Shown here piece after piece: positions 921-20,725 of a stretch of 23,039 nt of DNA; position 1 is the stretch's first letter; each line of letters opens with the position of its first letter. The notes below the pieces were generated by a model. The model saw only the letters and a list, made by a program, of their open reading frames with translations. It did no database searches and was not told the DNA's origin. A program made the position numbers and the translations under genes. The DNA is from a virus, in the IMG/VR virus record IMGVR_UViG_3300030329_003455, positions 1 through 23,039 of that record. One strand, 5' to 3'.

Positions 921-930
921 GTGGTATATA
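921..930 (+). promoter_or_regulatory. Possible extended -10 promoter for the GGCT/methyltransferase unit
   Basis: TGGTATATA at 922-930 fits an extended -10 element (TGN followed by TATATA), about 40 bases before the gamma-glutamylcyclotransferase-like start. No good -35 is present 17 bases upstream (only a T run). It is divergent from the leftward promoter at 859-887, so the intergenic region could control both units. Confidence 0.3.
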
Positions 931-968
931 GAATAATCTTCGTTAATCTAGAAAAAGGAGATTTTATC

Positions 969-1394
969 ATGTTAAAAGAACGGTCTATGTTATACTTAGG
1001 TTATGGTATGAACATGAATGTTGACTCTATGGCCTCTCGATGTCCCGCTGCTGTAAGCCTAGGGGGTTTTTATCTACCTAATTACAGGCTGGTTTTTCGG
1101 GGCGTTGCTGATGTCGTAGAGGATAAAGATAGTTATGTACCAGTAGCGTTGTGGCTTATAACAAAAAAATGCTTGAAATCCTTAGATCAACTCGAAGGAT
1201 ATCCAAGCCTTTATAATAGAAAAATTATCAATGGACGGTGGTGGATGTATTATATGAATGATAAAAGTTTTTTAGCACCGCCATCAGAACATTATTACAA
1301 AACTATTGAAAACGGTTATGATGCTTTTGATCTAGACTCCAGATCTATTCGGGTCGCAAAAAAAGAAGCGATAAACTCAATTATCGCCGCTTAA
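969..1394 (+). CDS. Gamma-glutamylcyclotransferase-like (AIG2/GGCT fold) protein
   Basis: The 141-aa product starts at ATG 969, which has a strong ribosome site (AAAAAGGAG); an in-frame ATG at 921 lacks one. Near the N-terminus is YLGYGMNMNVDSMASRCP, matching the family's substrate-loop motif (usually YGSN; here YGMN), then LVFRGVADV, and later LDQLEGYPSLY, where the Glu is the expected catalytic acid. The family folds as a small barrel and usually releases 5-oxoproline from gamma-glutamyl amines; phage copies have no proven substrate. It leads a rightward unit with an adenine methyltransferase 31 bases downstream. The family call is solid; the substrate is unknown. Confidence 0.8.
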   Translation: MLKERSMLYLGYGMNMNVDSMASRCPAAVSLGGFYLPNYRLVFRGVADVVEDKDSYVPVALWLITKKCLKSLDQLEGYPSLYNRKIINGRWWMYYMNDKSFLAPPSEHYYKTIENGYDAFDLDSRSIRVAKKEAINSIIAA

Positions 1395-2312: not shown

Positions 2313-2426
2313 CTAACCTTTAAAATTTTTCTTGGTTTCTAACTGACCATCTTCGTCATACTCTTCCCAAAGATTTCGTTCTCCGTCTTTGTAATTTTCT
2401 TTAGATCCTAAATGCAAAATGATCAT
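2313..2426 (-). pseudogene. Out-of-frame last repeat of the MORN gene
   Basis: Just past the stop of the MORN gene the repeat pattern continues in another leftward frame: an ENYKDGERNLWEEYDEDGQL segment ending at TAG 2313-2315. The adjoining in-frame repeats have the same NYKDG...LWE.Y...NGQL pattern. Between the conserved Asn codon and the Leu codon of this NGQL turn there are 13 bases where the other repeats have 6, so about 7 extra bases shift the frame. An ATG at 2424-2426 opens this frame for 37 codons, so independent translation is possible. More likely it is the detached C-terminus of the 122-aa protein, or an assembly error. Confidence 0.7.
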
Positions 2427-2757
2427 TCTTCCAATAGAATTCCCAAAAACCGTCTTGTTTTCCGTCTTTCCAATTTGCTTTGGATTTTAACTGACCATTA
2501 CCCCAATAGGATTCCCAAAGACCGTCTTTTTCTCCGTCTTTGTAATTTCCTTTGGACCATAACTGACCATTTTTATGATACTCTTCCCAAAGACCGTCTT
2601 CTTTATCGTCTTTGTAGTTTCCTCTCATCCATAACTGACCATTTTCATAATACCATTCCCAAAGACCTTCTCTTATTCCGTCTTTGTAATTTCCTTTGTC
2701 CCATAACTGACCATTTTCGTCATAGCCTTTCCAAAGGCCGTTCCGCTTTTCCTTAAT
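2318..2757 (-). repeat. 72-bp tandem repeats encoding MORN units
   Basis: The sequence AACTGACCAT or a close variant recurs on the plus strand at 2489, 2561, 2633 and 2705 with an exact 72-base period, and again at 2341. The interval from 2341 to 2489 is 148 rather than 144 bases, which exposes an indel. Each 72-base unit encodes one 24-residue MORN-type repeat on the minus strand. Near-identical units favour slippage or recombination that changes copy number. Confidence 0.85.
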
Positions 2758-2769
2758 TGCGTTTGCCAT
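2401..2769 (-). CDS. MORN-repeat protein (YwqK-like), probably C-terminally truncated
   Basis: The 122-aa protein is built almost entirely of 24-residue units of the form NGQL..KGNYKDG...GLWE.Y, with about five in frame. This MORN-type beta-hairpin repeat matches proteins often annotated as YwqK-family antitoxins in bacteria; that label is an annotation habit and no toxin partner is seen here. The protein has no signal peptide. The ribosome site AAGGA precedes the ATG, and it follows the 76-aa gene by 3 bases as the last gene of the 4004-to-2313 unit. The C-terminus is abnormal: after FYWKN the frame is lost and it ends FAFRI, whereas the repeat continues in another frame (2313-2426). Confidence 0.85.
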   Translation of the reverse strand: MANAIKEKRNGLWKGYDENGQLWDKGNYKDGIREGLWEWYYENGQLWMRGNYKDDKEDGLWEEYHKNGQLWSKGNYKDGEKDGLWESYWGNGQLKSKANWKDGKQDGFWEFYWKNDHFAFRI

Positions 2770-4460: not shown

Positions 4461-5018
4461 ATGCCAAAAATAAAACCAGAAGGATTTGACAAAGATAAAA
4501 ACCCAGCAAAATTCGGTAGAAAAATTACACCACAACAACAACGTTTCATAAATAACTATTTACACAAAGACATGACTCAGACCGCATCAGCTAGAGAGGC
4601 AGGTTATAAAAACCCTAACGTGTCAGCCGTCCAATTACTTAACCACCCTTTCATAAGAGAACGCATTGAAGAACAAAGACAGGAACTGGAAACTAAGTAC
4701 GGAGTAACCATAACGAAATCTGTGCGCGATATGCAGAGACTTAGAGATGAAGCTTGGGCGGCAGGTCGATACTCAGACGCTATTCGAGCCGAAGAATTAA
4801 GATTAAAAGCAACAGGATTGCTTGTAGCAAAATCACACGTTGTACATGAAAACGTAGATGGAATGAATCGGGATGATATCGTAAAAAAATTACAGGAATA
4901 TATGGAACGTGCTAAAGATAGGATGGTTGATGTAACACCAACAGAAAATCCCACAAAATCAGCACAAGTTCCTATAACTGACTGTAGCAAAGAAAAGAAA
5001 AATGTCGGGGATAACTAG
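4461..5018 (+). CDS. Terminase small subunit (TerS)
   Basis: The 185-aa protein starts MPKIKPEGFDKDKNPAKFGR. Residues about 22-75, with ITPQQQRFINNYL, MTQTASAREAGYKN and VQLLNHPFIRERIEE, match the helix-turn-helix DNA-binding N-terminus of the Terminase_2-type small subunit. A helical oligomerisation segment follows, then a disordered charged tail. TerS rings bind the packaging initiation site and hand DNA to the large subunit. The ribosome site before ATG is GGAG. It stands alone as a rightward unit; TerL lies about 6.9 kb away beyond a leftward cassette and a giant gene, which is an unusual separation. Hairpins and TTCGGG repeats immediately follow. Confidence 0.85.
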   Translation: MPKIKPEGFDKDKNPAKFGRKITPQQQRFINNYLHKDMTQTASAREAGYKNPNVSAVQLLNHPFIRERIEEQRQELETKYGVTITKSVRDMQRLRDEAWAAGRYSDAIRAEELRLKATGLLVAKSHVVHENVDGMNRDDIVKKLQEYMERAKDRMVDVTPTENPTKSAQVPITDCSKEKKNVGDN

Positions 5019-5114: not shown

Positions 5115-5252
5115 TTCGGGCTATCAGTGAGCCTCTCCTTGGCTCTACGGGCTTTCGGGCTTTTCGGGCTTTTCGGGCTTAAATTAAGATTTATTCGGGC
5201 TTTTCGGGGTCGATCTTCGGGCTTCGGGGCTTCGGGCCTTCGGGCTTCGGGG
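5115..5252. repeat. TTCGGG repeat array A, with G-quadruplex motif
   Basis: I count eleven TTCGGG words: starting at 5115, 5154, 5163, 5172, 5194, 5203, 5216, 5223, 5231, 5239 and 5246. Part is a strict 9-base tandem (TTTTCGGGC). At 5226-5252 four runs of at least three G are separated by loops of 4, 5 and 4 bases, meeting the usual G-quadruplex pattern. It sits between terS and the leftward HTH gene and could be a packaging site, a terminator complex or a roadblock. Confidence 0.75.
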
Positions 5253-5287
5253 TCTAATACTAATACTAATACTAGACCCCTTTATTG
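5249..5287 (+). terminator. Hairpin with TAATAC-repeat loop between convergent genes
   Basis: GGGGTCTA (5249-5256) pairs perfectly with TAGACCCC (5273-5280). The 16-base loop is made of tandem TAATAC-type repeats, and TTTATT follows on the plus strand. It lies three bases past the stop side of the leftward HTH gene, so it may end rightward transcripts from terS and also trim leftward ones. Confidence 0.55.
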
Positions 5288-5289
5288 AT

Positions 5290-5445
5290 TTACTCCAAAT
5301 ATTTCTTGATCCAATTATTAAGAGTCTGATAGTTCTTGAACCCTAACAGCTTTGAGGCTTGAACCTTGTTATTTTTTGAAGCTTTGAGGGCTTCCCTAAT
5401 TCTAGCTCGAATTAGGGTTGCGATTTCCTTTTCTAAAGGGATCAA
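5290..5445 (-). CDS. Orphan Fis-like helix-turn-helix protein (51 aa)
   Basis: A 51-codon leftward frame starts at TTG (5443-5445) with GGAG seven bases upstream and overlaps the stop of the 246-aa gene in a TTGA arrangement, indicating translational coupling. Residues about 14-51 (IREALKASKNNKVQASKLLG, then YQTLNNWIKKYLE) match the Fis/NtrC C-terminal HTH_8 pattern: helix, NN.VQAS.LLG turn and recognition helix TL.NWIKK. In NtrC-type regulators this domain follows an ATPase; here it stands alone, as in Fis itself. It likely dimerises and binds DNA near its own locus. Its non-ATG start and size make it easy to miss. Confidence 0.65.
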   Translation of the reverse strand: MIPLEKEIATLIRARIREALKASKNNKVQASKLLGFKNYQTLNNWIKKYLE

Positions 5446-6182
5446 TACATCACTCCTTCTATCTCTTTACAGTTTGAAAGTATAGCGAACTTTTTAAAGT
5501 CATCATCATTAGCACAGCCCCCATTTTCATTAAACCATTCACCTGACCATGATAGACCAAAAGAGCCGTTGCGTGTAGACCCGTCAAGCAAGTCTTTTGT
5601 TTCAGTATCAACTGACATATCTGCTATTGAAAAATGACAGTAGTCAGTCAGTACAGAATAAGGCTCTTCATAATCATTTATTTTAAAAAGTTTTGCGTCA
5701 GTGTAACCCCCTCGAACGTCAGCGCCACCGTGAATTTGAAGCAATACATAATCCTCGTCATCAGGATTTTTTAAGAATTGACCTTGCAGAACCTGAGAAA
5801 AATTATTGTCCCAGTTATAGGTGTTGAATCCAAGGCCGTCAGCTTCAAACCCCATATCATCAAGTAAATCTGACCCTTCAGAATCAGTCCCGCAATATTG
5901 ACCGTTCCAGTTGTTAACTTCTATTGCGTTAAACCTATGGCAGAACTTATCAAGTTCTAAAATCCCGCTTGTAAGTTTATGAAATAGAGAAACTGTGACT
6001 TCTGGCCATGAGTCTCCAACGTCATAAAATTTTATTGTTGCGGGTGCAGTATTTTTGAAATAGTCAATATTACACCCTTGATTACGTTGCCAATTACGAC
6101 CACCAGCACCCCCGCTATCTAATATGTGGGTGCCAGTATTTTCGGTTAACATTGCAACTATTGTTTCTTCTAAATTTTTCAT
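5442..6182 (-). CDS. Conserved hypothetical phage protein (246 aa)
   Basis: The 246-aa protein starts MKNLEETIVAMLTENTGTHI and continues LDSGGAGGRNWQRNQ. That opening (TENTGTH.LDSGGA.GRNW..N) recurs in uncharacterised phage proteins as I recall; function unknown. It is acidic, rich in Gly, Asp and Asn, and has LQIHGGADVRGGYTDAKLF in the middle and a Trp/Asn-rich segment near the end. It has no transmembrane segment and no clear catalytic motif. Its promoter region (6183-6271) is a near-copy of the one before the membrane-protein gene. It is followed by the coupled Fis-like HTH gene. Confidence 0.75.
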   Translation of the reverse strand: MKNLEETIVAMLTENTGTHILDSGGAGGRNWQRNQGCNIDYFKNTAPATIKFYDVGDSWPEVTVSLFHKLTSGILELDKFCHRFNAIEVNNWNGQYCGTDSEGSDLLDDMGFEADGLGFNTYNWDNNFSQVLQGQFLKNPDDEDYVLLQIHGGADVRGGYTDAKLFKINDYEEPYSVLTDYCHFSIADMSVDTETKDLLDGSTRNGSFGLSWSGEWFNENGGCANDDDFKKFAILSNCKEIEGVMY

Positions 6183-6271
6183 TGTTTTTTTCCAATTCTA
6201 AATTAACAATATAAAAAAAGTATAAAGATATTTATACATAATGCAAGCTTTTTATATAAGAATTTTTATAT
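6183..6271 (-). promoter_or_regulatory. Leftward promoter/operator, copy 1 of a duplicated 89-bp region
   Basis: On the minus strand: TTGCAT (6241-6246), 16-base spacer, TATACT (6219-6224). The spacer and -10 contain a perfect inverted repeat GTATAAA-N4-TTTATAC (6220-6237). Just upstream is an 18-base near-palindrome, ATATAAGAATTTTTATAT (6254-6271, one mismatched pair). The whole 89 bases match 7188-7276 with four differences. Confidence 0.7.
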
Positions 6272-6302
6272 CTAGTCGGGTTGCTGCGGTCTTATTTATT
6301 GG

Positions 6303-6391
6303 TCAGGGTTCGGGGTTCGGGGCTTTATAGTTCGGGTTCGGGGTTCGGGGCTTTATAGTTCGGGTTCGGGGTTCGGGGTTCCCTTTTATAG
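6303..6391. repeat. TTCGGG repeat array B with 28-bp higher-order units
   Basis: Eight TTCGGG words start at 6309, 6316, 6331, 6337, 6344, 6359, 6365 and 6372. They are organised in 28-base units that each end in CTTTATAG: 6303-6330 (degenerate start), 6331-6358 and a longer variant at 6359-6391. The G-runs of three to four bases separated by TTC can stack as a G-quadruplex if one loop is about 11 bases. The region between the 246-aa gene's promoter and the 105-aa gene has no coding potential that I can support. Confidence 0.8.
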
Positions 6392-7001: not shown

Positions 7002-7187
7002 TTATATTAAAGCAGCTATCAATAAAGAAGCCACATAAATTGAAGCCATAACCATTAGAGTCCAAGCCAATTTATTCCAAAAAACTTTTTTGGCTTCTTC
7101 TTTAGCATAGTATGCATGGATATGTTTGAATCTTTCTGCCTTAGATTCTTTTAACATTTTTTCCCATTCGGTTAATTGTTCTACCAT
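7002..7187 (-). CDS. Small C-terminally anchored membrane protein (61 aa)
   Basis: The 61-aa product starts MVEQLTEWEKMLKESKAERF at ATG 7185-7187, preceded by GGAG at good spacing. The frame is open 19 codons further upstream, but that part only translates the promoter/operator. A charged, helical cytoplasmic-looking half (residues 1-36) is followed by one hydrophobic segment, LAWTLMVMASIYVASLLIAA, to the C-terminus, so it is probably a tail-anchored inner-membrane protein. First gene of the leftward unit under the second copy of the duplicated promoter. It could be an exclusion or membrane-associated early protein, or holin-like, but nothing specific supports either. Confidence 0.65.
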   Translation of the reverse strand: MVEQLTEWEKMLKESKAERFKHIHAYYAKEEAKKVFWNKLAWTLMVMASIYVASLLIAALI

Positions 7188-7276
7188 TGTTTTTCTCCAA
7201 TTCTTAATTAACAATATAAAAAAAGTATAAAGATATTTATACATAGTACAAGCTTTTTATATAAGAATTTTTATAT
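7188..7276 (-). promoter_or_regulatory. Leftward promoter/operator, copy 2 of the duplicated 89-bp region
   Basis: On the minus strand: TTGTAC (7246-7251), 16-base spacer, TATACT (7224-7229). The palindromes are the same as in copy 1: GTATAAA-N4-TTTATAC at 7225-7242 and the 18-base near-palindrome at 7259-7276. Only four bases differ from 6183-6271, and two of them lie in the -35 hexamer. The remaining 7277-7433 holds no gene I can support; a weak inverted repeat, GGGTAT/ATACCC, is at 7347-7369. Confidence 0.7.
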
Positions 7277-7433
7277 TTATCCAGCACCTGTGTTTAATTA
7301 TCTTTTTCCTAGGTACCCTAAGCAATCTAAACAAATGTTCGGATTCGGGTATCTATTAAAGCAATACCCCCTATTTTCAAGCAATGACGGACAGCAACTT
7401 ATACTCTGTTTCCCACGAACAATCGCGGGTCCC

Positions 7434-7799: not shown

Positions 7800-10700
7800 A
7801 TGAGTAGTGGCATAGCTGTTAAGACGGGATTTTCTTCTCCTGCTATGATGGGTGGTATGCGTCCTATGGCGGGTATGGTTTCTCCTTATGGTATGCCGTT
7901 TCCTTCTGGTCCTCCTCCTGTTTCTCCTCCTGTTTCTCAGCAATTTCCTTCACCTATGAGTGTTCCTATGAATGCTTCGCGGGGCAATGTTGCTATTCAG
8001 GACAGGTCTAATGCTCCTCGTCGTCGCAGGTTTGGGGATAGTTTGGAGCGTATGTTATCCAGCACTGCGATGAGTCGTGGTGGTATGGGTAGTTTTCGTT
8101 CATCGGTTTCACGTTCTATGGTTCCACGTTTTATGATGGGTGGTGGTTTAGCATCACCTATGGTTTCTGCGGATGATATGTCTAGTATGGATGTATTTAC
8201 TGGTCAGATTCCTAATAATTATTCACCTATTCAGTATTATCAGGGTGCTGGTGAGGTTATGCCGGCAAATCGTGAGGATATTGGTTATGAGGCTGGTGGT
8301 GCTGGTTTTTCTGTTGTTACGGGTGGTCACAGAGGCTGGGGTGGACCAGAAGCGGGTTATGTTTCTCATGTAGTTTACACTGATGTTGATGGTAATCAGA
8401 GTAAATTGGCGACAATATCTGGTTATAAAGATAGCACTTACAGGAACAGGCATAATGCTCAGAGTTTAGCTAATCAATTAAATACTGCGGCATATTCTGG
8501 TTCTGGTTTGGGTATTGAGGCTGAGTCTGGTCGTGGTATGGGTGCTGGTTTATTAGGTATGGGTGATAGGCAGAGTTATTTGACGTTATCTGACGGGACC
8601 AGGATTGGCACGAGGCAGGGTAGTGGTTCGTCTGGTGAGCTTGAGAATTTGAATACTTGGGCTAGTGCGGCGATGGAATTGAATCAGGATATATATGGTG
8701 ATGGTACTGTTGGCATTGATGATGGTACTGATGATGGTACTGATGACGGCACGGATGGAAGCACTGGAGGCACAGGAGTTACTGGCACTGGTGATTATAG
8801 TAATGTTGTTACTGGCGGTGGTGATGCTACGAACATGATTGACACGAATATTGGCACTAGCACGGATGTTGGTGGTGATATGAATACGATGATTGGTAAT
8901 TATGGTATTTCGAGCAATCCTGCGGAGACTGCATTATTTGGTCCTAATGTTAGCGATGATTTATCTGTTGATTCTCAGTATACAGTTATTGCTGATCCTA
9001 ATTCAGTTAGTGGTTACAGTTATGGTACAACTGGCGGTGATACTATGACGGGTATATCTAACATTGGTGCGATTACGTTACCTGCTGATCCTATTGAGTT
9101 AGATATTTTTAATTATCTTAGTGGTCCTGCTTATGGCACGTTGGGTCAGGATGTTAGTGGTTATTTTCTGGGTGGTTTTGTTAAGGACGATGATGACGAA
9201 GATTACACGCCTACGAGTGATGAGTTACAAGCTGCGATTACTGCTGGAGGTGGAACAGACAAAACTTCTGATACAAGCAAAGTTGATTTTACTAAAACTG
9301 CATCTGGCAAAGATTTTACAACGTCTGCTGAATCTGACACTGATGATTTATTTGGTGGCACTAAGTACATTATAAACGACACGGGTAGGATGATAGACAA
9401 TATCAGCCTGCAGAAGTACACCGATTTGTTAGGTAATGCGTATGACGATTCAAGGTTAGTGGAGCCTGGTAATGTTGCTATTAACTACAAAGGTAATGTA
9501 GATATTAATAAAGCCGATTCACTTCCTTCTTATTTACCTCCAAACGCTCCTGGGTTTGATCAAGTCCCAACTAATCCTACTACATTTCAGTATGGATCAG
9601 GAGAAGTTAATATTCCAAAATATAGTATGCCGTACCTCCCGACTATAGCAGACTGGCCTCAGTTTTTCAATACTCCCCCAGACCCTTTTAATAAGGATCT
9701 TGAAGTTTTTAATGAGGCACAGCGTACACCTTATTCTCTTGCGCTATCTCCTTATCCCAAGGAAGAAGTGATAGGTCTTACTAGAGTAGCCTTGGGGGAG
9801 CATGAGAGTCCCGACCAACGTAGATCTAAGGCTGGATTAGATTCCGTATTTTCACAAGATCCGATAGTGTCCACTGGTTCTCAGCCCAGTACAACCAAAT
9901 TTGTATTTGGGGATGGATCTAAATACGAAGGAGAAATTAAGGATAATAAATTTCATGGGCAGGGTACCTATACTTTTGCCGATGGGACCAAACAGGTGGG
10001 AATCTGGAAGGATGGATATTTTCAGGAAGGGGATTCATTTGGTGAGTTATTCCCTGGCTCTAGGATTTTTGGCTCCCTGGATCAAGCGGACCCAAGTAGC
10101 GAGCTATCTCAAGGAACGGCCCCAACAGGAGATCCTTATTCAGGAGATCCTTATTATAGAGGTGATATAAATTTGTTAGGTACAGATGATGGTAGATTAG
10201 CAGATGCAAGTCCTCAGAATGAAATACAACCAATGACAGCACCATCACAGGCTTCACTACGTCCACCTACATTACCTTTGTCTGAAGGCATAGATGTTAC
10301 TCCTTTCAATAGATGGGCTCCCCCAGATAGAAGTGAAGACATTTTGGACGCACTAAGGGAGGCCATTTATGGTAATGAAATACGTCCTATGCTTCGTCCT
10401 TTTGATTACGAATATTTTCCATATAAGAATGAAAGCATAGATGATATTGTTAATTTTATAAAGAATGAGGAGGGTTTTCTTTCTTCACCTAGAAAGGATG
10501 GAAATGTTTTCAGGGGTGGTTTTGGAAGTGACACGACGACTTTAGCTGATGGCACGGTTGTTAGTGTAACACCTGATATGAAAATAACGGAAGCTGATGC
10601 TGACAGGGATATAGAGCGCAGGTTGTTGACCGAGTTTTTACCTGCGGTTGAAGGTGCTGTAGGTTCGGAGGCTTATTCAAATTTATCTTCTGGCGCGAGG

Positions 10701-11621
10701 GCTGCTTTAGCTAGTATAGCATATAATTATGGTGCGGGGTTTGCTAAAAAGGGTTATATGGCGGATGTCATATCTGCTGCTAGAGATAATGATGAATCTC
10801 GTTTAGCTTCTGCTGTTAGTAATTTAGGCAATCTTACCAGTGGCATTCATAATCCTAATCGTCGAAATCGTGAGGCTGATATTATAAGGAGTGGTTTGGT
10901 TAATGTTCGGCCGTGGGATATGCAAGATTCTTCTAGAACAATTCCTTTTCAAGGTGGCAATCAAGCTGGTAATAATGTTACGAATCTTTTAGATATTTTT
11001 AAAGATTTTGGTAGTAATTTTGGTCAGAATCTGAGGGAATTTACGGGTGCTGACGCATATGAGGGTATGAGTGATAAGGAACGTTTTAGGCGTAATTTAG
11101 AGTTAGCTGCTGGTCGTATTGGTTCTGATGATATGAACAGGGCTGATGAGATTAACCGTTTACTTAGCGGTGGTGGTAGTAAGCTTTTACAGGCGATGAG
11201 TTTTGGTTTATTGAATCCTGCGGCTGATATGAAGCGCAGGGCTACTAAGATGTTAGAATTGCTTGATAGTGGTGCTGAGATTATACGCATGGGGGATGAA
11301 GGTGGTGTATTAGGCATTATGGACCCTGAGACTAACAGGTTTTTGACTTTTGGCGGTACAGAGGGTCGTGATTCTGATATGAATGTTGTTAGGGATATTG
11401 GTGGTGATGATGACAGGCCAGTTGAGGTTTTGGAGAGGAATTACACGATTGGTTCTGATGGTGTAGTTGTTTGTAATGATGAGGGTTATGTTTATGATTC
11501 TGGGAAAAAGATGTGTGTTCCTGTTACTGAAGATCCTGATTTAGGCATGGCTACTGGTGGTTCTGTTGGTTTAAACAAGGTTGCTGATAATTTTTTAAGG
11601 GCTTTGGGAGGTATGCAATAG
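7800..11621 (+). CDS. Giant virion-type protein with MORN and lysozyme domains (1273 aa)
   Basis: The 1273-aa protein has a near-perfect ribosome site (AGGAGG). Residues 1-130 are Gly/Met/Pro/Ser-rich and look disordered. Residues about 301-325 are a DDGT-type acidic repeat. Residues about 700-745 contain a classical MORN unit (YEGEIKDNKFHGQGTYTFAD). Residues about 880-1035 match a phage muramidase-like domain: FIKNEEGF with candidate catalytic E891, then FRGGFGSDTTTLADGTV, ADRDIERRL and ARAALASIAYNYG; this subfamily, as I recall, shows R.GYGSDT in place of the T4 lysozyme TIGYGH. The C-terminus has GYVYDSGKKMCVP. It is likely a virion-carried peptidoglycan-cutting protein for DNA entry. Codon use changes in the middle (about 9520-10440). 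Confidence 0.75.
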   Translation: MSSGIAVKTGFSSPAMMGGMRPMAGMVSPYGMPFPSGPPPVSPPVSQQFPSPMSVPMNASRGNVAIQDRSNAPRRRRFGDSLERMLSSTAMSRGGMGSFRSSVSRSMVPRFMMGGGLASPMVSADDMSSMDVFTGQIPNNYSPIQYYQGAGEVMPANREDIGYEAGGAGFSVVTGGHRGWGGPEAGYVSHVVYTDVDGNQSKLATISGYKDSTYRNRHNAQSLANQLNTAAYSGSGLGIEAESGRGMGAGLLGMGDRQSYLTLSDGTRIGTRQGSGSSGELENLNTWASAAMELNQDIYGDGTVGIDDGTDDGTDDGTDGSTGGTGVTGTGDYSNVVTGGGDATNMIDTNIGTSTDVGGDMNTMIGNYGISSNPAETALFGPNVSDDLSVDSQYTVIADPNSVSGYSYGTTGGDTMTGISNIGAITLPADPIELDIFNYLSGPAYGTLGQDVSGYFLGGFVKDDDDEDYTPTSDELQAAITAGGGTDKTSDTSKVDFTKTASGKDFTTSAESDTDDLFGGTKYIINDTGRMIDNISLQKYTDLLGNAYDDSRLVEPGNVAINYKGNVDINKADSLPSYLPPNAPGFDQVPTNPTTFQYGSGEVNIPKYSMPYLPTIADWPQFFNTPPDPFNKDLEVFNEAQRTPYSLALSPYPKEEVIGLTRVALGEHESPDQRRSKAGLDSVFSQDPIVSTGSQPSTTKFVFGDGSKYEGEIKDNKFHGQGTYTFADGTKQVGIWKDGYFQEGDSFGELFPGSRIFGSLDQADPSSELSQGTAPTGDPYSGDPYYRGDINLLGTDDGRLADASPQNEIQPMTAPSQASLRPPTLPLSEGIDVTPFNRWAPPDRSEDILDALREAIYGNEIRPMLRPFDYEYFPYKNESIDDIVNFIKNEEGFLSSPRKDGNVFRGGFGSDTTTLADGTVVSVTPDMKITEADADRDIERRLLTEFLPAVEGAVGSEAYSNLSSGARAALASIAYNYGAGFAKKGYMADVISAARDNDESRLASAVSNLGNLTSGIHNPNRRNREADIIRSGLVNVRPWDMQDSSRTIPFQGGNQAGNNVTNLLDIFKDFGSNFGQNLREFTGADAYEGMSDKERFRRNLELAAGRIGSDDMNRADEINRLLSGGGSKLLQAMSFGLLNPAADMKRRATKMLELLDSGAEIIRMGDEGGVLGIMDPETNRFLTFGGTEGRDSDMNVVRDIGGDDDRPVEVLERNYTIGSDGVVVCNDEGYVYDSGKKMCVPVTEDPDLGMATGGSVGLNKVADNFLRALGGMQ

Positions 11622-11903: not shown

Positions 11904-13382
11904 GTGAATGATTTTGCAAATTTTACTAAATATTTAACGGATGATGAGTTAGCCAAGGTTGCTCCTATGTTGGAGCGATTACAAATTCTGGATGACAGAA
12001 CTGAGAAGAGTGCTAATTTTTTAAGTTTTGTTAAGTATGTTTGGCCTAGTTTTATTGAGGGCCGTCACCATAAAATTTATGCAGAGAAGTTACAAGCGGT
12101 AGCTGATGGTAAGTTAAAGCGTTTGATTATAAATATGCCGCCTCGTCATACTAAGAGTGAATTTGCCAGTTATTTATTTCCTACTTGGTTAATGGGTCGT
12201 AATCCTACTCGTAAGATTATTCAGGCTACGCACACTGCGGAATTAGCTGTTGGTTTTGGTAGGAAGGTTAAGAATTTAATTGACAGTGAAGAGTTTAGGG
12301 ATGTGTTTCCGAATGTAAAGCTTGCTTCTGATGCGAAGGCTAGTGGTCGTTGGAGTACAAATGCTGGTGGTGAATATTATGCTGTTGGTGTGGGCGGTGC
12401 GTTAGCTGGTCGTGGTGCGGATTTAGCTATAATTGATGATCCTGTATCTGAGCAGGATGCATTAAGTGTATCAGCTTTAGACAATATTTATGAGTGGTAT
12501 ACTTCTGGTCCGAGGCAGCGTTTACAGCCTGGGGGTTCTATAATTCTTGTTATGACTCGTTGGAGTATTAGGGATTTGACGGCAAAGGTTTTACAAAAGC
12601 AGAGTGAAGTTGGCGCAGATAAATGGGAGGTTGTGGAATTCCCGGCTATTATGCCTAGTGGTAAATCTTTATGGCCTGAATTTTGGTCATTAAAGGAGTT
12701 GGAGGGTGTTAAGGCTTCGATTCCTATAAGCAAGTGGAATGCTCAATATATGCAGAATCCCACTGCTGAAGAGGGTGCTATTATTAAGCGTGAGTGGTGG
12801 AATTTATGGCAAAAGGATTCTCCTCCTGTTTGCAGTTATGTTATTCAGTCTTATGACACTGCGTTTAGTAAGAGTGATCGTGCGGATTACAGTGCTATTA
12901 CAACGTGGGGTATTTTTTATCACGAGGATACTGGAGAGGATCATATTATTTTGCTTGATGCTACCAGGGGCAGGTGGGAATTTCCTGAATTAAAGGAGCA
13001 AGCGAATAATTTATATCAGGAATTTGATCCTGATATGGTATTGATAGAGCAGAAGGGATCAGGTATGCCTTTAACGCAAGAATTGCGTAGGGCTGGTATT
13101 CCTGTTACGCCATTTACTCCTAGTCGTGGTGCTGATAAATTTACGAGAATGCATTCATGTGCGCCTGTTTTTGAGAGTGGTATGGTTTGGTGTCCTGAGA
13201 CTAGTTTTGCGGAAGAGGTTGTTGAGGAGTGTGCTTCTTTTCCTAATGGTGAATATGATGACTTGGCAGATTCAATGACACAGGCTATACTGCGTTTTAG
13301 GCAGGGTGGTTTTATTACTACTGCGACTGATTATGATGATGAAGATGAATTTTTTTCTCGACGTAAAAGAGAATATTATTAG
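11904..13382 (+). CDS. Terminase large subunit (TerL), ATPase and nuclease
   Basis: The 492-aa protein drives DNA into the prohead and cuts the concatemer. The N-terminal ATPase shows a Walker-A-like segment, NMPPRHTKSE (about 78-86; the deviant form common in terminases), Walker B LAIIDDP (about 174-180) and a coupling motif, VMTRW (about 216-220). The C-terminal RNase H-like nuclease has acidic residues at SYDTA (D318), LIEQKGSG (E382) and YDDLADS (about 451-457). Length is normal for the family. The frame opens at GTG 11904 with only a weak GGAT upstream; the next in-frame ATG (11967) would remove 21 residues but keep all motifs. It is separated from TerS by about 6.9 kb. Confidence 0.95.
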   Translation: MNDFANFTKYLTDDELAKVAPMLERLQILDDRTEKSANFLSFVKYVWPSFIEGRHHKIYAEKLQAVADGKLKRLIINMPPRHTKSEFASYLFPTWLMGRNPTRKIIQATHTAELAVGFGRKVKNLIDSEEFRDVFPNVKLASDAKASGRWSTNAGGEYYAVGVGGALAGRGADLAIIDDPVSEQDALSVSALDNIYEWYTSGPRQRLQPGGSIILVMTRWSIRDLTAKVLQKQSEVGADKWEVVEFPAIMPSGKSLWPEFWSLKELEGVKASIPISKWNAQYMQNPTAEEGAIIKREWWNLWQKDSPPVCSYVIQSYDTAFSKSDRADYSAITTWGIFYHEDTGEDHIILLDATRGRWEFPELKEQANNLYQEFDPDMVLIEQKGSGMPLTQELRRAGIPVTPFTPSRGADKFTRMHSCAPVFESGMVWCPETSFAEEVVEECASFPNGEYDDLADSMTQAILRFRQGGFITTATDYDDEDEFFSRRKREYY

Positions 13383-20198: not shown

Positions 20199-20248
20199 AT
20201 CCTGATAGCTGCATGGTGCGGCTAACACAGCCAAGACAGGAGAAACAT

Positions 20249-20725
20249 ATGGCTACTACGACTTTTCAAGGTGTCGTTCGTTCTTATGGTGGGGGCGGCA
20301 AAGGTGTTGTTACACCGGGTGTAATGACTCAATCAGTGCAAGTTTCTTGCGATCCGACAGTTTCTGCTGCTGCATCAGTAAGAATTGGCACTTCAGCTAC
20401 CGCAGGTGAAACATTAACATTACCTGCTGGTGCAATTATTATTTCTGTAATGACAATGAATGCTTCTACAGGTGGAACTAACCCGACAATTGATATTGGG
20501 GGTACTCCTACTGGTGGTGCAAATGACCCAGATGGTATTTTTAATGAAGTTGATTGTGATGGAAAAGGGACCATTAAAGGAGCAGATGGGGCATTGTGTA
20601 TTGCAGGAGGGCTTGCTGCCAATACGTTAGTTACGGCTATGAAAGGTTCATCTGCTGCAACAGGTGGTACTTGGACAGGTATTATTACCTATGCTATGGC
20701 TAATGATGGCGTAGAATCAACATAA
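20249..20725 (+). CDS. Putative virion structural protein (158 aa)
   Basis: The 158-aa protein starts MATTTFQGVVRSYGGGGKGV at ATG 20249, six bases after AGGAG; an in-frame ATG at 20213 would put that site inside the gene and is rejected. The protein is small-residue- and Gly-rich with alternating beta patterns (SVRIGTSATAGETLTLPAGA, IIISVMTMNASTGGTNPTID), like head or tail surface proteins. No specific family is recognised; the first gene after the capsid terminator. Confidence 0.7.
   Translation: MATTTFQGVVRSYGGGGKGVVTPGVMTQSVQVSCDPTVSAAASVRIGTSATAGETLTLPAGAIIISVMTMNASTGGTNPTIDIGGTPTGGANDPDGIFNEVDCDGKGTIKGADGALCIAGGLAANTLVTAMKGSSAATGGTWTGIITYAMANDGVEST

What the first reader, a model, noticed from the sequence alone, without database searches (positions are those of the whole stretch)
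5115..6391. Two TTCGGG repeat arrays bracket the 246-aa/HTH cassette next to terS
Nineteen TTCGGG words cluster in two short GC-rich blocks (5115-5252 and 6309-6377) of an otherwise AT-rich genome; the second has a 28-base higher-order unit. At least one stretch (5226-5252) fits a G-quadruplex. Being directly downstream of the terminase small subunit they may be the packaging (pac/cos-region) recognition repeats. Alternatives are recombination boundaries of a mobile cassette, or structured terminators/roadblocks.
Basis: partly seen in the sequence, partly recalled or inferred. Interest (0 to 1): 0.7.

Follow-up and report, generated by a model that had tools for sequence, protein, structure and literature searches.

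The report
Phage packaging-signal repeat arrays
Two clusters of a short repeated DNA word next to a marine phage's packaging gene recur, always on the same strand, in nearly all relatives with the same kind of packaging protein, while cousin phages with a different version carry a different repeated word, so the clusters are probably the tag the phage uses to pick its own DNA for packaging.

Summary
Confirmed: 19 TTCGGG words lie in two arrays (5115-5251, 11; 6309-6377, 8). All 25 copies in the window are on the + strand, and simulations never exceed 4 per 140 nt against 11 observed. The feature is conserved. TTCGGG is the top hexamer of all in the 500 nt after terS in 38 non-redundant loci chosen without the motif. 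Of 85 such loci with this TerS clade, 84 carry TCGGG clusters on the terS strand and 0 on the other. Records of 55-60 kb carry triple runs only near terS. Homologous TerS of the HTVC027P clade goes with another word, CAAGC, in 7-nt register: 55 of 57 loci, mostly two arrays, 0 with TCGGG. TerS is the only gene family found in all 127 array neighbourhoods, and its DNA-binding domain matches SF6/SPP1 small terminase. Best reading: pac-type recognition arrays read by TerS in headful packaging (about 0.6). No binding or virion-end data exist. RNA structure, a general G-quadruplex role, cos ends and block-swapped cassettes are not supported. New variant of a known kind.

The parts
4461..5018 (+). 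terminase small subunit (TerS), 185 aa, SF6/SPP1-like N-terminal HTH (helices 24-35, 40-47, 52-61)
   Evidence: Pfam PF03592 5e-10; phrog_51; profile match to SF6 TerS 3zqp 9.5e-9; AlphaFold model with best PDB match SF6 DBD 4zc3, TM by target 0.86, Foldseek E 0.11
5115..5251 (+). array 1: 11 TTCGGG direct repeats, 97 nt after the terS stop (proximal array)
   Evidence: conserved position in relatives
5247..5280 (.). hairpin GGGGTCTA...TAGACCCC that closes array 1, with CTAATA repeats in the loop; terminator-like, between convergent genes
   Evidence: read; CTAATA x3.5; paired in the fold
5290..5460 (-). 56-aa ORF, Fis-type HTH (HTH_8), weak match; part of the bracketed block
   Evidence: 20.9 bits, below cut-off 22
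5442..6182 (-). 246-aa protein, phrog_11344, unknown function; bracketed cassette gene
   Evidence: 4e-27; relatives in Erythrobacter, Gordonia and Mycobacterium phages
6309..6377 (+). array 2: 8 TTCGGG direct repeats with an exact 28-nt higher-order unit (distal array)
   Evidence: distal arrays in relatives
11904..13382 (+). terminase large subunit (TerL)
   Evidence: phrog_38, 1.6e-109

Best explanation
The two TTCGGG arrays are the packaging-initiation (pac-type) recognition region of this 55-60 kb podovirus group. TerS, an SPP1/SF6-type small terminase with an N-terminal HTH, oligomerises on the direct repeats of [T/A]TCGGG and recruits TerL. TerL makes the first cut in or near the region, and packaging then runs headful, giving circularly permuted DNA with no fixed ends. 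The proximal array (just after terS) and the smaller distal array would act like pacL and pacR of SPP1, though set wider apart (distal array 0.55-2.7 kb after terS, with small genes between). Related TerS clades read other words (CAAGC in HTVC027P-type phages), so each lineage packages its own DNA. SHOWN by sequence: the arrays, their conservation, strand lock, near-uniqueness in the genome, clade-specific words, 7-nt register, TerS family. INFERRED: TerS binding, the cut, the headful mechanism.
For: (1) In 38 non-redundant loci found by TerS alone (window included), TTCGGG is the commonest hexamer in the 500 nt after terS, 21.6 times background. All 38 have 7-18 TCGGG on the terS strand and 0-3 on the other in 400 nt. 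(2) 84 of 85 clade-A loci fetched by TerS or TerL scans have the cluster, 0 of 85 on the opposite strand. Of 20 TerL-scan loci with 4 kb or more upstream, 13 show TerS, and all 13 have a cluster downstream of it. (3) A word scan of IMG/VR, made without regard to TerS, stopped at 120 stretches; 78 of the 119 new loci encode a homolog of this TerS. (4) Whole records: 17 of 18 have tandem TTCGGG pairs, each record on one strand only; 7 of 7 near-full-length records have triple TCGGG only near terS. (5) The word changes with the TerS clade: CAAGC in 55 of 57 HTVC027P-type loci (the 2 misses have only 509 and 176 nt upstream), 43 of 57 with two or more clusters; 0 of 57 carry TCGGG clusters. (6) TerS is the only family in all 127 neighbourhoods compared (70 A, 16 B, 41 C). 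(7) TerS belongs with SF6 TerS; SPP1 gp1 binds pacL and pacR flanking the cut (PMC6316719, passages) and SPP1 pac has three sets of direct repeats (PMC4737164, passages). (8) Contig ends do not pile up at arrays, and HTVC023P-type genomes were circularised by terminal overlaps (PMC9599517, passages).
Against: No binding, cleavage or virion-end data. The spacing (mostly exactly 7 nt in clade C, 6-8 in A, 6-7 in B) is not the roughly one helical turn per HTH of known TerS rings, and the SF6 domain showed little sequence preference (PMC4737164). In clade C the arrays lie about 0.45-3.7 kb upstream of terS with genes between. The gap between arrays is wider than I recall for any pac. Clades A and B share the word although the TerS tree puts B with C and D rather than with A (long branches, so uncertain). 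Clade-D repeats are weaker (24 of 42). DSL-LC04, with a 29% TerS, has no array downstream of terS. CAAGC clusters also occur inside HTVC027P gp83.
Confidence: 0.6

Rival explanations
1. The arrays are binding sites (iterons) of a replication-initiation or partition-like protein: a multi-site protein such as SPP1 gp38 on oriL/oriR, or an omega-type ribbon-helix-helix protein on heptads, coats the repeats to start replication or sort copies; nearness to terS is incidental.
For: Short contiguous repeats in 7-nt register resemble the heptad sites of omega of pSM19035 (PMC5016525, passages and a reference title). SPP1 origins also hold direct repeats beside an AT-rich stretch (PMC6316719, passages). 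AT-rich DNA follows both arrays. The window's cumulative GC skew is lowest at about 7.5 kb.
Against: No gene family other than TerS is present in all 127 neighbourhoods, though an initiator need not lie there. In HTVC027P the cumulative skew has no extremum at the arrays, only a small local dip at 15-18 kb, and its primase, helicase and polymerase genes lie 8 kb or more away. In the window the skew follows gene orientation. The word changes with the TerS clade.
Confidence: 0.17
2. Transcriptional element: 3' ends or operators between early and late genes; the arrays end or regulate transcription through hairpins with UUCG loops, G-quadruplexes, or a phage regulator that also binds the dyad AACCCGAACAATTGTTCG.
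For: In several of 12 mapped relatives the arrays start right after a + strand gene. Some distal arrays contain terminator-like hairpins with T runs (read). A hairpin closes array 1 in the window. The dyad, whose arm contains CCCGAA, is confined to the same region in clade A: 188 copies in 0-5 kb after terS against 7 elsewhere.
Against: Folding z-scores -0.07 and -0.55. In the window array 2 lies between minus-strand genes yet stays on the terS strand. The dyad is absent from the window and from clade B, which have the arrays. The CAAGC word holds no G-run, so no G-quadruplex there.
Confidence: 0.13
3. Recombination boundaries: the arrays delimit a mobile cassette exchanged as a block.
For: Small variable genes lie between the arrays in the loci drawn; phrog_1392 proteins lie there in L102 and in HTVC027P.
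Against: Of 28 pairs with similar terS and similar downstream DNA, 0 have an unrelated cassette and 27 have a similar one. Strict strand and heptad register are not needed for homologous exchange.
Confidence: 0.04
4. Simple-repeat expansion (slippage) of a neutral GC-rich word.
For: Copy number varies from locus to locus, and some runs are perfect tandem copies.
Against: The core is kept while linkers vary, in loci of 31-54% GC, in the same place and strand across TerS of about 25-75% identity to the window's.
Confidence: 0.03

Closest known systems
SPP1/SF6 pac site (TerS gp1 binds pacL and pacR; boxes A, B, C)
   Same: TerS of the same family by profile and fold; direct repeats next to terS; two regions
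   Different: Array after the 3' end of terS instead of over its promoter and 5' end; 7-18 short words in 6-7-nt register; distal array 0.55-2.7 kb after terS with genes between; word differs between clades
P1 pac (hexanucleotide repeats; recalled, no call)
   Same: short word in direct copies, two groups
   Different: other word, another phage group; methylation control in P1 (recalled) not tested here
HTVC027P and HTVC023P pelagiphages
   Same: same genome group (TerL 60% and 55%); HTVC027P has a homologous TerS (32%) and heptad arrays
   Different: word CAAGC and terS inverted (HTVC027P); CTAGGAAAA and a 33-nt triplet beside terS (HTVC023P); these arrays were not mentioned in the passages I saw
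omega/parS heptads of pSM19035
   Same: contiguous 7-nt units in several blocks
   Different: no omega-like or ParA gene was seen among the conserved neighbours; function differs

Membership tests
pac site of an SPP1/SF6-type headful phage | cognate TerS of that family encoded beside it | tested here: met
   84 of 85 loci
pac site of an SPP1/SF6-type headful phage | repeat elements local to the terS region | tested here: met
   exception: coding CAAGC cluster in HTVC027P gp83
pac site of an SPP1/SF6-type headful phage | TerS binds it specifically | not testable with these tools
   needs EMSA, footprint or SELEX
pac site of an SPP1/SF6-type headful phage | first cut maps there; circularly permuted virion DNA | tested here: inconclusive
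   no contig-end pile-up; G022 ends overlap by about 72 nt with mismatches; published circularisation; no read data
cos site | linear virion ends at the site | tested here: not met
   96 of 144 loci run 2.5 kb or more beyond terS; ends spread; 7 of 7 long records carry the array inside the record; indirect, from contigs
DNA G-quadruplex element | four G-runs with short loops, loop sequence free | tested here: not met
   motif in 65 of 86 loci, but TC before the G-run is kept and the clade-C word has no G-run
structured RNA or intrinsic terminator | stable fold beyond composition | tested here: not met
   (window arrays only); no Rfam match at the arrays
replication origin with iterons | initiator gene near, skew extremum | tested here: inconclusive

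The most novel reading that the evidence does not exclude
A heptad packaging code: in this marine phage group TerS (or a partner) reads 5-nt words in a 7-nt register (three units = 21 bp, about two helical turns), in two strand-locked arrays. Whole arrays switched word between clades (TCGGG, CAAGC, perhaps TAGGAA), which keeps co-infecting relatives from packaging each other's DNA. This would be sequence-specific, multi-site recognition unlike the weak, non-specific binding reported for the SF6 TerS domain.
Probability: 0.35. Interest if true: 0.8.

Novelty: new variant of a known kind. Interest (0 to 1): 0.63.

Why it matters
How small terminases choose phage DNA is poorly defined; the SF6 work found no sequence preference in the isolated domain (PMC4737164, passages). 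Here is a natural swap experiment: homologous TerS proteins paired with different, clearly delimited repeat words, with isolates in culture (HTVC027P, HTVC023P). It also gives a sequence handle for predicting packaging sites and possible mis-packaging in widespread ocean phages.

Tried and rejected
RNA structure: folds at shuffle level; no Rfam match at the arrays. Block-swapped cassette: 0 of 28 comparable pairs unrelated. cos ends: no pile-up of contig ends. G-quadruplex as the conserved trait: rejected. GC-skew origin in HTVC027P: no extremum at the arrays. Homology of the bracketed 246-aa protein with HTVC027P's bracketed 199-aa protein: none. A distant-TerS scan in GTDB genomes gave 1 relative of 57 candidate stretches, an uncultured alphaproteobacterial MAG contig (L515), with array. 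The distant-TerS scan of IMG/VR returned mostly close clade-A members, so clade B outside L515 is motif-ascertained (24 of 25 loci). Foldseek on the whole TerS model gave no match at E below 0.001; the best was the SF6 domain at E 0.11 with TM by target 0.86; mean pLDDT 68.6.

Literature: full-text searches for TTCGGG with phage, HTVC027P/HTVC023P (46), terminase small subunit + pac site + direct repeats (47), pac site/hexanucleotide/PacA/headful packaging (77), pelagiphage + tandem repeats + terminase (78), small terminase + tandem repeats + pac + binding site + phage (80), and heptad repeats/iterons/terminase and others (81) listed no paper whose title or abstract start describes these arrays. 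For PMC9599517, PMC4737164, PMC6316719, PMC5016525 and PMC9238414 I saw passages found by term; PMC12753301 gave no passage for my terms; no paper was read whole. Two hits that carry TTCGGG (the RCA roseophage paper PMC6918029 and the VarioGold paper PMC9658991) were seen only in the listing.

Weak points of method: non-redundancy was by shared 12-mers; rows without a TerS stop or with too little flank were dropped (152 loci, 2 without stop, 86 kept; 401 to 226). The clade-D cluster rule was looser (4 in 130 nt) than for the others (4 in 80). In one search my query for the nuclease-like gene was read in a wrong frame, so that gene was not located there; its family appears instead. The TerS tree's bootstrap had not settled and has long branches.

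Full report
OBSERVATION. The window is an IMG/VR virus record of 23039 nt. It contains 25 TTCGGG, all on the + strand. Eleven lie at 5115-5251 and eight at 6309-6377. Markov models of order 2-4 give at most 4 in any 140 nt, against 11 observed. Array 2 is built of an exact 28-nt unit.

SURROUNDINGS. Array 1 starts 97 nt after the stop of terS (4461-5018; Terminase_2). Between the arrays lie a weak HTH_8 ORF and a 246-aa gene, both on the minus strand. TerL follows at 11904. By TerL the nearest isolates are phage DSL-LC04, Pelagibacter phage HTVC027P, phage 023Pt_psg01 and Pelagibacter phage HTVC023P, at 55-62% identity. This places the window in the HTVC023P/HTVC027P-type group of podoviruses of about 60 kb.

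CONSERVATION WITHOUT MOTIF BIAS. A TerS scan of IMG/VR gave 72 relatives. In 38 non-redundant loci (window included) TTCGGG ranks first of all hexamers in the 500 nt after terS: 197 copies, 21.6 times background, 33 of 38 loci with three or more. The + strand density is 19.3 per kb in the first 250 nt after terS, with a second hump of 4-6 per kb at +1.25 to +2 kb; the minus strand stays near 1 per kb. Counting the core TCGGG, all 38 loci have 7-18 copies on the terS strand and 0-3 on the other in 400 nt. With further scans by TerS and by TerL, 84 of 85 non-redundant clade-A loci have a cluster (four in 80 nt), and 0 of 85 have it on the opposite strand.

NEAR-UNIQUENESS. Of 18 whole records, 17 hold tandem TTCGGG pairs, each record on one strand only and within about 2.7 kb. 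The exception, L022's record, has an array with more ATCGGG (for its kin, 91). In 7 of 7 records of 55-60 kb, triple TCGGG runs occur only near terS (set against terS positions).

ARCHITECTURE. In the 12 loci drawn, the common order is terS, proximal array, small variable genes, distal array, and in many a gene of about 390 aa, then TerL. Of 150 loci 87 show both arrays by a three-word rule, the distal one starting 552-2711 nt after terS (redundant set). The arrays keep the terS strand even where, as in the window, the bracketed genes run the other way.

WORD CHANGES WITH TerS CLADE. HTVC027P has a homologous TerS (32% over 110 aa). Its relatives (57 non-redundant loci, two isolates included) carry no TCGGG cluster, but 55 of 57 carry CAAGC clusters on the terS strand, 0 of 57 on the other by the four-in-80 rule. 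The two without have only 509 and 176 nt of upstream sequence. Again there are two arrays in most (43 of 57 with two or more clusters), a large proximal one and a smaller distal one, and in the four clade-C loci drawn they bracket a 199-aa phrog_1392 gene. Spacing of CAAGC is 7 nt in 536 cases and 14 nt in 97, the two linker positions being free. TCGGG spacing is mostly 6, 7 and 8 nt in clade A and 7 or 6 in clade B. The HTVC023P clade has TAGGAA clusters just before terS in 24 of 42, and the isolate has a 33-nt triplet just after terS; this third case is weaker. DSL-LC04 has no array downstream of terS.

WHICH PROTEIN READS IT. Clustering all ORFs around terS in 127 loci (70 A, 16 B, 41 C), TerS is the only family present in all. 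By profile it matches SF6 TerS structures (3zqp, 9.5e-9). In the AlphaFold model the three-helix N-terminal domain has block-mean pLDDT of about 82-91 within a model of mean 68.6, and the best fold match is the SF6 DNA-binding domain 4zc3 (TM by target 0.86, Foldseek E 0.11). The closest DNA-bound structural relatives of that domain include the telomere-repeat protein hTRF1 (PMC4737164, passages); telomere-like direct repeats are therefore a plausible target, by inference only. Against this, the isolated SF6 domain bound without sequence preference, and known TerS rings space their HTHs by about one helical turn, whereas these words come every 6-8 nt; three heptads make 21 bp, close to two turns.

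PACKAGING MODE. Contig ends around terS are spread out (99 downstream ends), and 8 of 144 loci end within 400 nt of the terS stop. Ends of seven long records lie in different sequences, none at the arrays, and one record (G022) overlaps its own start by about 72 nt. HTVC023P-type genomes were circularised by terminal overlaps (PMC9599517, passages). This fits circularly permuted, headful DNA rather than a cos cut at the arrays. It does not prove a pac site.

RESULTS AGAINST. Clade B (TerS 25-31% identical to the window's in the alignments) shares the word TTCGGG with A, yet the TerS tree groups B with C and D rather than with A (95/87 support, long branches, bootstrap not settled), and B shares the nuclease-like gene with C (16 of 16 and 41 of 41). 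So the word does not simply follow TerS descent; array transfer, convergence or another reader protein remain possible. Twenty-four of 25 clade-B loci were found by the motif itself; only L515 was not. CAAGC also clusters inside HTVC027P gp83.

A SECOND ELEMENT. In clade A only, a dyad GAACA[A/C]TTGTTC, typically AACCCGAACAATTGTTCG, occurs 188 times within 5 kb after terS and 7 times elsewhere in 101 loci (86 of 101 have it), and in 0 of 125 loci of the other clades. Its arm CCCGAA is the reverse complement of the array word, nearly always on one arm only (92 left, 21 right, 1 both, 71 neither, of 185). It looks like an operator (recalled: resembles Gram-positive LexA boxes); its absence from the window and clade B shows the arrays do not depend on it.

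VERDICT. A real, conserved, strand-locked and lineage-specific feature. Best explained as TerS recognition arrays of a pac-type site (0.6). It would work like SPP1 pac; membership is met for TerS family and location, untested for binding and cutting.

Noticed in passing
clade-A relatives, e.g. L022:6829-6840, L041:8451-8462: dyad element AACCCGAACAATTGTTCG(NN)TT: 188 copies within 5 kb after terS against 7 elsewhere in 101 loci, absent in other clades and in the window; asymmetric CCC arm; possible operator
   Followed up: partly
window 6180-6274 and 7185-7279: 95-nt repeat, 95% identical, upstream of and reaching into the start of two minus-strand genes (246 aa and 61/80 aa): duplicated promoter/leader
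   Followed up: no
window 20200-20251 (+): Rfam Mu-gpT-DE RNA, 57.5 bits, shortly after the major capsid gene
   Followed up: no
window 2401-2769 (-) and 7800-11621 (+): 72-nt repeat protein with MORN-like look, and a 1273-aa protein with MORN repeat and phage lysozyme domain
   Followed up: no
window 921-1394; L041:8655-9818: gamma-glutamyl cyclotransferase/AIG2 protein, and an amidoligase-like gene that follows the distal array in many relatives
   Followed up: no
L199:6470-6568 and 5673-5773 (HTVC023P): 33-nt direct repeat x3 just after terS and CTAGGAAAA repeats just before it; TAGGAA clusters in 24 of 42 loci of that clade
   Followed up: partly
HTVC027P record 50612-50892 (locus L517; gp83): CAAGC clusters inside a coding gene, away from the terS region
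   Followed up: no
L197:8754-9350; L102:1842-2567; L172:2693-3472: phrog_1392 proteins in the terS-terL interval, between the arrays in HTVC027P and L102; by ORF clustering the HTVC027P-type family is in 40 of 41 C, 7 of 16 B, 1 of 70 A loci
   Followed up: partly
window 5247-5280: hairpin GGGGTCTA...TAGACCCC with CTAATA repeats closing array 1, between convergent terS and 246-aa genes; terminator-like
   Followed up: no
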